In this document: piece by piece, positions 20,443 to 26,031 of the stretch
Position numbering within the stretch: the stretch's first letter is position 1
Layout: every line of letters starts with the position of its first letter
Virus record (IMG/VR): IMGVR_UViG_3300036715_003254
Coordinates: 1-64,000 of that record
Origin: a virus
DNA length: 64,000 bases
Reading direction: 5' to 3' (one strand)
The notes under the pieces: model-generated
The model's input: the letters and a program-made list of their open reading frames with translations, nothing else
The model's database searches: none
Told to the model about the DNA's origin: nothing
Translations under genes and position numbers: made by a program

Positions 20443-21903
20443 TCACGAGAAAAGTTCTTTCATTTTTTCTTTAGCCTCGTCCCAACTTCCAGTCATAGTA
20501 CCAAAAGAATATTCTGAGACAGTACTTTCAAAGAAATTAGTGTAAGTAGTCAGACTCAACTGATTTTCCATCCAAGGAAGAGGATTTTCTTTGATACCGT
20601 AGTTCGGTTTGAGTCCGAATTGTTTTAATCTTTGATCAGCAATATATCTTACATAAAGTTTCATTTCATCTTTAGTAAGATTATTCAAGTCTCCTAGTTT
20701 GAATACATAATCAATATAATCTTCTTCTTTAGCTACAATCTGTCTGGCAGCTTCGTAAATATCTCTTTTAAAATCATCATTCCAGATTTGTCTATTCTCT
20801 TTTATTATAGTTTTGAATAACCAAGCGTTGCCGTCGATGTGACAGTTTCCAGTAACAGAAACTTTGCCATTACTTCTAATAACAAAAGCTTTTCCTGGAA
20901 CAGTTGGACAATAGAAATTTTTTTTATCTGTATTTTCAAGCTTTGTTTTTTCTATTTTACTACTACCGCCTTTTATAAATTCATCACCTTCCACAAATTC
21001 ATATTTTTCTGCTATTTCTTCTTGTGCTTTTCCATCTCTTTTAAATACCATTCTATGACCAGGAGTAACTATTTGTTCGACATCATCTGACTCAAATTTA
21101 TAATAGTAATCTGGACAAGATTTAGTAAAGTGTGTTGGTTCTACAAAAGAATATTCTTCTGTTTCCATATCGAATTGGAGTATTTTTTCTCCTGGCTGAA
21201 GATCTTCTATCTTTTTCCAAGAACCATCTTCTAATTGAACTTCCGTACCTTCTATTATACAATTTTCATCAAGGATACTCCACGACAAAACCTTGTTCAT
21301 ACCAGGAAATTTACCATCTCTAGAGAAAGAAGCTAGTATAGCAAACTGAGCAAATAAAGATATACCTTCTACTAAACCAGAATAAACAGCTATCATTCTA
21401 GCAACATCTTTTCTGAATTCTATATCAGCTTTTTCTATACCATATTCAGAAACATAGTAATGGAATTGTCTAACTCTTGCTTTATGTATATAATCATATT
21501 TTAGAGAAAGACTAGGAATATACTCGTATTCTTTATAGAACTCTTCTGGAAAGCCTAGAGTATCAAGAAGCAAACTATAAGCGTCTTGATGTAGAGATTC
21601 TCTGTTTCCGAAGCTTCTCAACATCATTTTAACTTCATTGGGTTTAAATGCTCTAATAAGAATATCATATCCCATACCTACTTCTGTGTCATTTTGAACA
21701 AAACCTTGAAATATACTTGTTATTATGTGCTTTTCTTCTATAGAAATAGTAGTCCAGTCTTTCATATCGCCTGAAAGGTCTATCTCTTCGGTAGTCCAGT
21801 GAAGGGCTACCTCGTGAGTTTTATATCTATCATAAGCGCTTGGATAATGAAATGGTTTATATGATTTTGAATCAGTATGAAATAAATTATATTTTTTTGA
21901 CAT
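20443..21903 (-). CDS. nrdB: Ribonucleotide reductase small subunit with in-frame mini-intein
   Basis: NrdB carries the metal/radical cofactor of class I ribonucleotide reductase. The host protein is residues 1-214 plus 354-486 (347 residues, normal length): FGNRESLHQDAYS and VEGISLFAQFAIL are metal-ligand helices. Between them, exactly within LDEN/CHIDGNAW, lies a 139-residue intein (215-353). Splicing would restore DENCHID, where E and H are expected iron ligands, so the enzyme cannot work unspliced. It follows nrdA by 15 bases. Confidence 0.9.
   Translation of the reverse strand: MSKKYNLFHTDSKSYKPFHYPSAYDRYKTHEVALHWTTEEIDLSGDMKDWTTISIEEKHIITSIFQGFVQNDTEVGMGYDILIRAFKPNEVKMMLRSFGNRESLHQDAYSLLLDTLGFPEEFYKEYEYIPSLSLKYDYIHKARVRQFHYYVSEYGIEKADIEFRKDVARMIAVYSGLVEGISLFAQFAILASFSRDGKFPGMNKVLSWSILDENCIIEGTEVQLEDGSWKKIEDLQPGEKILQFDMETEEYSFVEPTHFTKSCPDYYYKFESDDVEQIVTPGHRMVFKRDGKAQEEIAEKYEFVEGDEFIKGGSSKIEKTKLENTDKKNFYCPTVPGKAFVIRSNGKVSVTGNCHIDGNAWLFKTIIKENRQIWNDDFKRDIYEAARQIVAKEEDYIDYVFKLGDLNNLTKDEMKLYVRYIADQRLKQFGLKPNYGIKENPLPWMENQLSLTTYTNFFESTVSEYSFGTMTGSWDEAKEKMKELFS
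20845..21261 (-). other. NrdB mini-intein (139 aa, no endonuclease)
   Basis: It starts with Cys in CIIEGTEVQLEDGSW, has block B TPGHRMVF (T and H for splicing), and ends VSVTGN before Cys+1. There is no homing endonuclease domain. The usual penultimate His is Gly, a known but less common state. Confidence 0.9.
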
Positions 21904-21918
21904 TTTACACCATCCTTT

Positions 21919-22995
21919 TTATTGACAAGACAAACAAGTTTCATATTTGTCCATTTCTTGAATTATTTCTCTTTCGTAATTTGAGCTAGCTTTAGTAGCA
22001 GATTGACTTCTACAGTAGTAAAGACCTTTTAATCCAGCTTTCCAAGCTTGTAAATGTACATAAGCAAGATAACTTCTATCAACATCGTGATTAAAGAATA
22101 GATTTACGGATTGACCTTGGTCAATTTTTTCTTGTCTTACTTTAGCGTGAGAAATAATCCATCTTTGGTCTATTTCGTAAGCTGTTTTGAATACAAGTTT
22201 AGCGTCGTCACTCATCCACTCAAGACCTTGAACAGAACCTCTGTCTTTGATTATTCTTTTCCACTGTTTTTCAATCCACTTATCATCTTCGCCATTCTCT
22301 TCAGCATATTTCTTGATATACTTTTCAAGATTGACATTTCTTATTTCGTGTTTTCCTGTTTTATTTTCGTGAATATAAGCGTTAGCTATAATAGGATCTA
22401 TTCCAGGAGACACATTGTCACAAAGAATAGAAATACTTCCAGTAGGAGCAATAGCCATCTTACAGACGAATCTATCAGTTCCATCTCCATATTCGATAGA
22501 CATAGGACAAGCGCCTTTTTCTTTAGCTATTTCTTTTGACGCTCTATCAGTAGCATCTTTCAAGAAAGTACAAACCTTTCTTTGGAAACCTTCAGCAAGA
22601 GCTGACTCGAAAGGTATCATTTTAGATTGGAGATATGTGTGAAGACCCATTTGACCTAGACCAACAGATCTTTCATATAGAGCGGATTTAAGAGAGTTTT
22701 GGAAACCTCTCGGTTCACCGAATTTTCCAGATTTAGCTTTTCTTTCAAAATCGTCAATTACATTATCAAGAAGTCTCATAATATCTTCTATAAATTGGTA
22801 GTTGTCTTTCCACTCATCGTATTTTGCTAGGTTGACTGAAGCCAAACAACATACAGCAGTGTAATCTTCTGCTACTCTCAACATTATTTCATTGCAGTTT
22901 GAAACTAGTATTTCATTAGCGAAAAAATTGTGGTTATCCTCCACAGTTATATCATAAACAGGAATTTCTTCCTCTAAAAATTCTATTTTGAGCAT
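21919..22995 (-). CDS. nrdA: NrdA C-terminal half led by split-intein C-fragment
   Basis: Residues 1-33 are the C-part of a split intein (VYDITVEDNHNFFANEILVS, then N), followed by Cys34, the first residue of the NrdA C-half (CNEIMLRVAED). The rest is the catalytic barrel of the large subunit: the second active-site Cys (AVCCLASVNLAKY), SALYERSVGLGQMGLH, AIAPTGSIS, and a redox tail ending CLSCQ. Joined to the partner, the mature protein has about 585 residues, lacking the ATP-cone regulatory domain of longer NrdA. It has its own GGGAAG ribosome site, 15 bases after the partner's stop. Confidence 0.92.
   Translation of the reverse strand: MLKIEFLEEEIPVYDITVEDNHNFFANEILVSNCNEIMLRVAEDYTAVCCLASVNLAKYDEWKDNYQFIEDIMRLLDNVIDDFERKAKSGKFGEPRGFQNSLKSALYERSVGLGQMGLHTYLQSKMIPFESALAEGFQRKVCTFLKDATDRASKEIAKEKGACPMSIEYGDGTDRFVCKMAIAPTGSISILCDNVSPGIDPIIANAYIHENKTGKHEIRNVNLEKYIKKYAEENGEDDKWIEKQWKRIIKDRGSVQGLEWMSDDAKLVFKTAYEIDQRWIISHAKVRQEKIDQGQSVNLFFNHDVDRSYLAYVHLQAWKAGLKGLYYCRSQSATKASSNYEREIIQEMDKYETCLSCQ
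22897..22995 (-). other. Split intein C-fragment (33 aa)
   Basis: Blocks F and G (VYDITVEDNHNFFANEIL, VSN/C). It ends Ser-Asn rather than His-Asn. It begins with its own ATG, as in known naturally split inteins of phage origin. Confidence 0.9.
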
Positions 22996-23010
22996 ATATT
23001 TCTTCCCTTA

Positions 23011-24078
23011 TTAAGATATTTTAAGAACATCAGTTTCATTCAAATCTTTGGCCATAACATAACCTCTGTTTTCTGTCCAAATTTTATGGTCAGGAGTACA
23101 AACGATTTGTTTGCCAGATTCAGTATCTGTTATTCTCATTACTTTAGCTTTAGGCGAAGTCATAGCAAAATCAGTAACTTCTTTGAATGAAATTTCTTTT
23201 GTTTCAGTATTCATAGACTTTACTTTATCGCCTATTTTTATATCTTTTAGTTTTTTATAGCCTTCTTCTGTTTCTAATATAGAATCGCCAGATAAGCATA
23301 ACTGTGAAGTTGTTATTTTCCATCCAGCTTTCACATACAATTCATTCAAATTCTTATTAGCGTTTTCCGAAAAGAATAGATAAGGTTCGCCGTGTTGATG
23401 TCTCTTAGTAAGAATTTTTGTAAATATGTCAAAAGCATCTAGAGTTTTTACTACACTTCCGTCTTTTCTAGAGTATAGGTTATATGACTCGCCGTTTATG
23501 ACAGCATTTAAAAACTCATCAGTAAGTTTTACTGCGTGATGTAGTTTAGGCATCCTTCTTTCTATAGAAGCACCTTTTGTAGTTCTCATTTCTATAAATT
23601 CTTCTATTTCAGGATGATGTACATCTAGATAAATTGCTTGAGAGGCTCTTCTCAAACCTCCTTGAGAAATACCTTGAGCAATAGACTCGCTTATTTTTAG
23701 GAAAGGCATTATACCTGATGTTTTACCGTTCTTAGTTTTAGCGCCTACCTCTCTTACTTCTGAGAAGTCATTTCCTATACCACCTCCAGCAGCACCAAGA
23801 ACCATAGCCTCATAATATTTGTTAAAGATATCATTAAGAGAATCTGAAGTTTGCTGTACGAAACAAGAAATAGGTAAACCTCTTTCATTTCCTAGATTCG
23901 CTGTTATTGGTGTTGATGTTCTAAACCAATTTCGCTCAAAATAGCTATAAAGTCTTTTTTCGTGTTCGGGATTGTCGGCTCCAGCGCGACAAACTCTTTT
24001 GTAAACGTCTTCGGGTTTTTCTCCTGCTGCAGGATTCACATACGACTCTTGAAGCATAATTCTTTCAAATTCGTTCAT
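23011..24078 (-). CDS. nrdA: NrdA N-terminal half ending in split-intein N-fragment
   Basis: Residues 1-260 are the N-half of the class I large subunit, with the redox Cys in GLPISCFVQ, GGGIGNDFSEVREVG and ASQAIYLDVHHPEIEEFIE. They end at TTSQL. Residues 261-355 are the intein N-part. The junction places the intein directly before the cysteine that becomes the thiyl radical in this family (SNLC in E. coli; here SQLC, with Gln for the usual Asn). An intrinsic-terminator-like hairpin at 24104-24135 separates it from clpP upstream. Confidence 0.92.
   Translation of the reverse strand: MNEFERIMLQESYVNPAAGEKPEDVYKRVCRAGADNPEHEKRLYSYFERNWFRTSTPITANLGNERGLPISCFVQQTSDSLNDIFNKYYEAMVLGAAGGGIGNDFSEVREVGAKTKNGKTSGIMPFLKISESIAQGISQGGLRRASQAIYLDVHHPEIEEFIEMRTTKGASIERRMPKLHHAVKLTDEFLNAVINGESYNLYSRKDGSVVKTLDAFDIFTKILTKRHQHGEPYLFFSENANKNLNELYVKAGWKITTSQLCLSGDSILETEEGYKKLKDIKIGDKVKSMNTETKEISFKEVTDFAMTSPKAKVMRITDTESGKQIVCTPDHKIWTENRGYVMAKDLNETDVLKIS
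23014..23298 (-). other. Split intein N-fragment (95 aa)
   Basis: It starts CLSGDSILETEEGYKK (block A), has block B CTPDHKIWTENRGYV, and ends DLNETDVLKIS before the stop. The break is at the place where split inteins of the NrdJ, gp41 and NrdA groups are broken. Confidence 0.9.
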
Positions 24079-25332: not shown

Positions 25333-25632
25333 TTAATTGTGTCTCAAAAAGACTTTATGTAACTTAAATTGTATAAATCTTTCTTGGGTTTTTACATAGT
25401 TTTTACCACAAATAGAATAAGACAAGCAATATGCTTTTTCAAATATTACTCTATCACCTTCTTTGATATTTTTTACTTTTTTACCAACAGCAATTACAGT
25501 ACCTTTAGCTTGTCTTTCTGAATCAATTCTTTCACCTTCTTCATCAGAAGTATCAAGTTCATCAGAATCAAGCTCTATTACTATATCTCTTTTGTTTAAC
25601 CATAAAAGAATTGATTGTGTTTCTTCTGACAT
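25333..25632 (-). CDS. GroES-like co-chaperonin (gp31-like), first paralogue
   Basis: The 99 residues show the cpn10 beta-barrel pattern: DIVIELDSDELD, AKGTVIAVGKKVKNIKEGDR, VIFEKAYCLSY. The mobile loop that binds GroEL would lie around residues 25-37 and is acidic here (TSDEEGERID). T4 gp31 replaces GroES to fold the capsid protein. A second copy is directly upstream at 25744-26031; this one has diverged more at the C-terminus. Confidence 0.7.
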   Translation of the reverse strand: MSEETQSILLWLNKRDIVIELDSDELDTSDEEGERIDSERQAKGTVIAVGKKVKNIKEGDRVIFEKAYCLSYSICGKNYVKTQERFIQFKLHKVFLRHN

Positions 25633-25743: not shown

Positions 25744-26031
25744 TTAATCCATTTTGAGTTGAATATGTTTCTCCAGAATCTGTGTATACTTCTTATCACC
25801 AACAGTGTAATCGATACCGAACTCTTTTCCAAAAACTACTTTATCACCGACTTCGACCTCTTTTACTTTACTACCAACAACAACTACAGTACCTTGAGTT
25901 TGTCTATCTAAAACAGATCTATTTCCTACTCCAGTAATAATACCAGACTCAGTTATTTGTTCGTACGGATCAAGTTCTATTACTACATCTTTTTTATTAA
26001 CCCATCTAGGAACTGAAGGAAATTCAAACAT
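25744..26031 (-). CDS. GroES-like co-chaperonin (gp31-like), second paralogue
   Basis: The 95 residues read as cpn10: DVVIELDPYEQITESGIITG with the mobile loop, QGTVVVVGSKVKEVEVGDKV, VFGKEFGI and a TQILEKHIQLKMD end. The loop ESGIITGVGN is close to the GroES G-G-I-x-L type. It is therefore the more likely functional gp31 equivalent. It is 12 bases after the nuclease gene. Confidence 0.8.
   Translation of the reverse strand: MFEFPSVPRWVNKKDVVIELDPYEQITESGIITGVGNRSVLDRQTQGTVVVVGSKVKEVEVGDKVVFGKEFGIDYTVGDKKYTQILEKHIQLKMD

What the first reader, a model, noticed from the sequence alone, without database searches (positions are those of the whole stretch)
21919..24078. Naturally split intein in NrdA at the radical cysteine
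The NrdA N-half (23011-24078) ends in a 95-residue intein N-part and the C-half (21919-22995) starts with a 33-residue C-part. Each has its own start and the second its own ribosome site; no homing endonuclease lies between. The splice junction is SQL/CNEI, so Cys+1 is the residue that becomes the thiyl radical in class I reductase. NrdA activity thus depends on two proteins splicing in trans. Penultimate residue is Ser, not His, and the usual Asn before L-C is Gln.
Basis: partly seen in the sequence, partly recalled or inferred. Interest (0 to 1): 0.85.

Follow-up and report, generated by a model that had tools for sequence, protein, structure and literature searches.

The report
Trans-splicing split intein in phage NrdA
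A phage encodes the large subunit of its DNA-building-block enzyme as two separate proteins that carry matching intein halves and almost certainly stitch themselves together exactly at the enzyme's radical-forming cysteine; this is a real but ordinary-for-phages member of a widespread, already described family of split inteins, here without the usual homing-endonuclease gene between the halves.

Summary
The same split occurs in two other assembled contigs, so it is not an assembly error. The two halves lie in one frame, separated by TAATAA plus 12 nt. Read together they give a high-confidence intein fold (pLDDT 95), closest by sequence and by fold to NrdJ-1 and gp41-1, two naturally split inteins. 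The same intein sits at the same NrdA cysteine in over 100 retrieved viral contigs, and in cultured Yersinia and Campylobacter phages. Most copies are split around a homing-endonuclease gene: the 'fractured gene' arrangement of Dassa 2009. The window belongs to a minority without it; on the intein tree this state arose at least four times, and in one near-identical pair (L155 against L149) the endonuclease gene has visibly been deleted. The Gln before L-C is natural variation of one phage NrdA lineage. Ser for the penultimate His is rare (2 of 55). The adjacent NrdB carries a second, cis intein between two metal ligands. Verdict: real, new member of a known kind; splicing itself is inferred, not shown.

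The parts
23299..24078 (-). NrdA N-extein, 260 residues, ends in TTSQL
   Evidence: PF02867, PF00317 and PRK09102 hits; 6dqw/6dqx alignment
23014..23298 (-). Intein N-part (IntN), 95 residues, Cys1 ... TPDH block B
   Evidence: TIGR01445 and PF14890 over cut-off; AF2 model
23008..23013 (-). Tandem in-frame TAA TAA stop codons
   Evidence: sequence; the same in L003 and L004
23004..23009 (-). AAGGGA Shine-Dalgarno-like site of the C-half gene, overlapping the second stop
   Evidence: sequence compared with the upstream regions of neighbouring genes
22897..22995 (-). Intein C-part (IntC), 33 residues, ATG start, ends ILVSN (penultimate Ser)
   Evidence: TIGR01443 over cut-off; alignment A1
22894..22896 (-). 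Cys+1 = NrdA radical cysteine (E. coli Cys439 equivalent)
   Evidence: alignment with 6dqw/6dqx SNLC(S/T)EIML; Cys439 role in PMC4728125
21922..22896 (-). NrdA C-extein, 325 residues, with CCL, YYCRS and C-terminal CLSC motifs
   Evidence: PF02867 and PRK09102
20443..21903 (-). NrdB with an in-frame (cis) mini-intein
   Evidence: NF007186 300.7 bits; spliced form aligns to solved R2 proteins
20845..21261 (-). NrdB cis intein, 139 residues, between LDEN and CHIDG (E-N / C-H metal-ligand motif)
   Evidence: coordinates; weak Hint and TIGR01445 hits; same site as the Aquifex R2 intein (PMC8772380)

Best explanation
It is a naturally split class 1 intein inserted directly before the radical cysteine of a phage class I ribonucleotide reductase large subunit. 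The two halves are translated from adjacent cistrons of one transcript (inferred), IntN and IntC bind and fold into a Hint domain, Cys1 and Cys+1 carry out the acyl shifts, the terminal Asn of IntC cyclises, and the two NrdA halves are ligated into a 585-residue subunit in which Cys+1 is the radical cysteine. It descends from the phage 'fractured gene' NrdA intein family, most likely by loss of the homing-endonuclease gene between the halves. Shown here: anatomy, predicted fold, family, repeated occurrence of the endonuclease-free state. Inferred: actual trans-splicing and dependence of RNR activity on it.
For: Anatomy and profile hits. Same split in L003 and L004. AF2 model of the two parts read together: mean pLDDT 95.3, pTM 0.89, lowest-confidence block around the split. 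Best fold matches NrdJ-1 8ubs (E 2.4e-12) and gp41-1 6qaz (E 1.2e-10), also the best by sequence. 55 distinct intein pairs at this cysteine, 50 of them split. In all 35 loci compared, both intein parts are more like the window's than either extein flank is, as expected of an element that moves between NrdA genes. Purifying selection on both parts against sister L074: dN 0.22, dS about 1.7, near saturation. Starred tree node with L074, which has 1692 nt holding a 542-aa ORF between the halves.
Against: No splicing experiment. The penultimate His is Ser, seen in only 2 of 55 relatives. Splicing without penultimate His has a precedent in the literature (title of Chen 2000, cited in PMC8772380), but how well it works here is unknown. 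The ORF between the halves of the sister L074 hits only a family of unknown function, so the loss of an endonuclease gene in the window's own line is inferred from the wider family.
Confidence: 0.88

Rival explanations
1. Genes in pieces without splicing: the two halves associate non-covalently into an active NrdA, as in Aeromonas phage Aeh1.
For: Aeh1 NrdA is encoded by two genes, split by an endonuclease gene, and is still functional without a self-splicing intron (PMC3653736).
Against: Here all residues for splicing except the penultimate His are kept, both intein parts are under purifying selection, and the break lies directly at the radical cysteine, where 95- and 33-residue extensions would obstruct the active site (inference).
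Confidence: 0.05
2. A degenerating or poorly splicing intein: an in-frame nonsense change in a contiguous mini-intein plus loss of the penultimate His, leaving a weak or dead NrdA.
For: The halves are in one frame with two tandem stops; penultimate Ser in 2 of 55.
Against: A good ribosome site and ATG lie exactly at the position where relatives restart; the split is kept in three assemblies, with 1 mismatch in 4301 bases to L003; the sister intein L074 is split too; a one-in-three chance of sharing a frame needs no explanation.
Confidence: 0.05
3. Readthrough or reassignment of TAA makes one continuous precursor.
For: Same frame, no other stop between.
Against: Two consecutive TAA codons; TAA is the commonest stop of genes checked here; relatives with 0.7-2 kb between the halves cannot be read through.
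Confidence: 0.01
4. Assembly error.
For: Metagenomic record.
Against: Three contigs of different size agree at this place.
Confidence: 0.01

Closest known systems
Split NrdA inteins of 'fractured genes' (Dassa et al. 2009, NAR 37:2560; NrdA-2 among them)
   Same: Split intein in phage NrdA. Loci L141, L144, L163 and L166 have IntN and IntC that I recognise from memory as very close to NrdA-2 (not testable here, the paper is not held), at the very same cysteine as in the window.
   Different: The window has no gene between the halves (12 nt after the second stop); penultimate Ser.
NrdA of Yersinia phage vB_YenM_TG1 (KP202158) and Campylobacter phages CPt10 and IBB_35
   Same: Split intein in NrdA, IntN 41-47% and IntC 65-68% identical.
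   Different: About 1 kb lies between the halves; in TG1 it is an annotated HNH homing endonuclease.
NrdJ-1 and gp41-1 split inteins (PDB 8ubs, 6qaz)
   Same: Closest solved structures by sequence and by fold.
   Different: Other host proteins and sites.
Cis inteins at the same NrdA cysteine (Caulobacter phage CcrMagneto; viral L092, L190, L091)
   Same: Same insertion point in the extein.
   Different: One polypeptide; the annotated intein of CcrMagneto is about 307 residues and more distant (IntN 29% identical).
Aquifex aeolicus NrdB intein (PMC8772380)
   Same: The window's NrdB intein sits at the equivalent place, one residue after the metal-ligand Glu and before Cys-His.
   Different: 139 residues, too short for an endonuclease, here; 346 with LAGLIDADG in Aquifex.

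Membership tests
Naturally split intein (class 1) | Cys/Ser at intein position 1 and block B T-x-x-H | tested here: met
   CLSGD start and TPDH
Naturally split intein (class 1) | C-terminal Asn followed by Cys/Ser/Thr +1 | tested here: met
   LVSN|CNEI
Naturally split intein (class 1) | Penultimate His (usual, not universal) | tested here: not met
   Ser; 53 of 55 have His, L120 also Ser. Not a strictly defining feature, so it does not exclude membership.
Naturally split intein (class 1) | Two separately started ORFs that together form a Hint fold | tested here: met
Naturally split intein (class 1) | Trans-splicing activity | not testable with these tools
   needs co-expression
NrdA split intein family at the radical cysteine | Same insertion site and homologous intein | tested here: met
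   55 distinct pairs, tree and identities
Fractured-gene arrangement (Dassa 2009) | Free-standing homing endonuclease gene between the halves | tested here: not met
   No ORF between the halves; the sister L074 has a 542-aa ORF there, no match to it in this genome
Class I RNR large subunit | Barrel domain, radical Cys, second redox Cys, YY pair, C-terminal Cys pair | tested here: met
   PF02867 and PRK09102; GLPISCF, CNEI, CCL, LYYCRS, CLSC after joining
Class I RNR large subunit | Asn two residues before the radical Cys (E. coli Asn437) | tested here: not met
   Gln here; also Gln in 43 viral NrdA genes with an uninterrupted motif, so a lineage variant rather than a ground for exclusion

The most novel reading that the evidence does not exclude
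Both RNR subunits of this phage are locked until splicing: NrdA in trans at the radical cysteine, NrdB in cis between two metal ligands. Without an endonuclease the split could have been kept because it times or conditions RNR assembly (for example by redox or metal state), so that the inteins would be post-translational switches rather than parasites.
Probability: 0.07. Interest if true: 0.65.

Novelty: new member of a known kind. Interest (0 to 1): 0.4.

Why it matters
It adds a compact split intein (95 + 33 residues, Cys+1) to the small set with adjacent genes and no endonuclease, close in sequence to the NrdJ-1 and gp41-1 inteins used in protein engineering, and with the rare penultimate Ser. 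The family seen here has contiguous forms, split forms with an endonuclease gene and split forms without one at a single site, and so makes the order and reversibility of intein splitting directly testable. It also suggests that phage nrdA genes annotated as disrupted (Campylobacter phage CPt10) are trans-spliced genes.

Tried and rejected
Gln for Asn before L-C as a sign of a dead or odd enzyme: rejected as peculiar to this gene, since 43 of 52 hits to a Q-L-C-x-E-I...CCL DNA pattern are NrdA genes whose motif is uninterrupted. From memory, Gln at this position inactivates the E. coli enzyme, so its tolerance in these phage enzymes remains unexplained. TAA reassignment: rejected. A remnant of an endonuclease gene in the 15-nt spacer: frame 3 reads KGRNICSK*, resembling the KGRKYGNKN* end of the GIY-YIG genes in relatives, but shifted by one base relative to the ATG and mostly explained by the ribosome site; not counted. 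The spacer ORF of sister L074 elsewhere in this genome: no match, though that search had no positive control. Only the NrdA and NrdB inteins were found in the 138-kb record with PF14890 and TIGR01445. A regular-expression scan for other NrdB inteins among the loci returned nothing at all and is uninformative. The Dassa 2009 paper is not in the library. The genome-contig scan brought weak intein matches from archaea and bacteria that I did not analyse. One PADLOC scan gave nothing.

Full report
What is there. On the minus strand, 24078-23011 encodes 355 residues: 260 of a class I RNR large subunit ending in TTSQL, then 95 residues CLSGDS...DVLKIS. After TAA TAA and twelve more bases, 22995-21919 encodes 358 residues: 33 residues MLKIEF...NEILVSN and then CNEIMLR... 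to the NrdA end. Profiles recognise NrdA in both (PRK09102 292.6 and 364.5 bits), intein_Nterm (30.9 bits, cut-off 24.5) in the first and intein_Cterm (34.5 bits, cut-off 15.6) in the second.

Is it an error? L004 (93.7-kb contig) is identical over 9065 bases and L003 (23.4-kb contig) is 99.55% identical over 8650 bases, with 1 mismatch in the 4301 bases around nrdA; both have the same stops and start. TAA is the commonest stop of the genes checked in the window, and tandem TAA ends other genes too. Assembly error and recoding are therefore unlikely.

Does it make an intein? The two parts were read as one chain (TAA as Gly, 134 residues) and folded with 50 rows from other viral loci: mean pLDDT 95.3, pTM 0.89, nearly all beta; the weakest ten-residue block is 91-100, around the split. 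The PDB's best fold matches are the NrdJ-1 and gp41-1 inteins (E 2.4e-12 and 1.2e-10, TM 0.87 and 0.84 on the query), then DnaB and other inteins. phmmer gives the same top two (6.1e-14 and 5.6e-9). Both are naturally split inteins.

Where in NrdA? The joined extein aligns along nearly its whole length with solved class I large subunits 6dqw and 6dqx; the junction cysteine falls on their SNLC(S/T)EIML. That cysteine is the thiyl-radical residue, Cys439 in E. coli (PMC4728125). E. coli Asn437 and Glu441 contact the substrate ribose; here they are Gln and Glu. All 57 motif hits in the first, mostly intein-free set of NrdA loci have Asn, but a DNA pattern scan found 43 viral NrdA genes with Gln and an uninterrupted motif. 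The Gln is thus a trait of part of phage NrdA, not a mark of this intein.

How common is it? Scans of viral contigs with IntN and with an IntC alignment gave over 100 loci with this intein, 55 distinct IntN/IntC pairs with the window included: 5 contiguous; 7 split with up to 200 nt between the halves (window 15, L142 51, L155 67, L127 68, L060 99, L145 181, L120 192); 2 with about 350 nt; 41 with 673-2018 nt. The counts are of a capped sample: one search kept 80 of 536. Nearly all long spacers hold a large ORF. Of eight such ORFs scanned, four hit GIY-YIG-type domains over cut-off, one reaches the HNH cut-off, one has weak TnsA and endonuclease I hits, one (L074) hits only DUF7487, and one (L126, with a visible HHIIPRH motif) hits nothing. 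Among cultured phages, Yersinia TG1 has the same split intein with an annotated HNH homing endonuclease between the halves, and Campylobacter CPt10 and IBB_35 have it too, although CPt10 nrdA is annotated as disrupted. Earlier literature: 7 nrdA genes interrupted by inteins in GOS data (Dassa 2009 as cited in PMC3653736), and NrdA-2 listed as an identified but uncharacterised intein (PMC7090010).

History. On the intein tree (52 rows) the window pairs with L074 (100/84, starred), which is split by 1692 nt. The five short-spacer rows in the tree need five changes, at least four forced by starred branches; the contiguous rows need four, at least three forced. So endonuclease-free split genes arose repeatedly. 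One case is caught in the act: L155 is 99-100% identical to L149, L152, L153 and L156 on both sides, but lacks about 730 nt of the GIY-YIG gene and keeps its last ~50 nt (THPGDGWYKGRKYGNKN*), so there the gene was lost rather than not yet gained. Window against L074: IntN 66% and IntC 82% identical, extein flanks 35-36%. In all 35 loci compared the intein is more similar than the extein, which points to movement between NrdA genes. The root is not known, so whether contiguous L091-L094, nested among split forms, are re-fused or ancestral is open.

Odd points. The penultimate Ser occurs in the window and L120 only; both have SQL before the intein (2 of 3 SQL loci, none of the other loci with the junction in view). 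The two are not sisters in the tree. This is a post hoc association of tiny numbers. Splicing without penultimate His has been reported (Chen 2000, cited in PMC8772380).

Neighbour. The next gene, NrdB (20443-21903), carries a contiguous 139-residue intein (20845-21261) between LDEN and CHIDG. Spliced, the Glu and His fall on the E..H motif of a solved small subunit (9dws), by position the Glu238/His241 metal-ligand pair of E. coli (own knowledge). The Aquifex NrdB intein lies at the same place, and there the protein made from the intein-bearing gene held more iron and was twice as active (PMC8772380). Both subunits of this RNR thus carry inteins inside the catalytic motif.

Verdict. The finding is right. 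It is a split intein that very probably trans-splices NrdA at its radical cysteine, a new endonuclease-free member of a widespread and described family. Trans-splicing, and the dependence of RNR activity on it, remain to be shown.

Noticed in passing
window 20845-21261 (-): NrdB carries a 139-residue cis intein between two metal-ligand residues (penultimate Gly, not His), the same site as in Aquifex aeolicus NrdB.
   Followed up: partly
L062 1329-8718 (and L063, L097, L098): NrdA in four pieces with three split inteins and a large ORF (endonuclease-like by eye) in each gap, in a 201-kb phage contig.
   Followed up: partly
L060 3368-6843: NrdA in three pieces with two split inteins and no endonuclease; a terminator-like hairpin with a T run lies between the first two pieces.
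   Followed up: no
L155 1-300 against L149 1882-2900: Near-identical nrdA genes with and without the GIY-YIG endonuclease gene between the intein halves; L155 keeps the last ~50 nt of that gene.
   Followed up: yes
L070 2666-6751 (Campylobacter phage CPt10), L069 (IBB_35): nrdA annotated as disrupted looks like a fractured gene with a split intein, so possibly functional by trans-splicing.
   Followed up: partly
43 loci among L244-L295: A lineage of viral NrdA with Gln instead of the active-site Asn two residues before the radical Cys.
   Followed up: partly
L120 3806-4000 and L145 3817-4000: Short spacers between the intein halves hold a similar open frame of about 65 residues, overlapping the C-half start; the L120 one has no Pfam match.
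   Followed up: no
L091, L093, L094: Contiguous inteins nested among split ones on the intein tree: possible re-fusion of a split intein.
   Followed up: no
window 25333-25632 and 25744-26031 (-): Two adjacent similar small ORFs that look like GroES-type co-chaperonins (by eye only).
   Followed up: no
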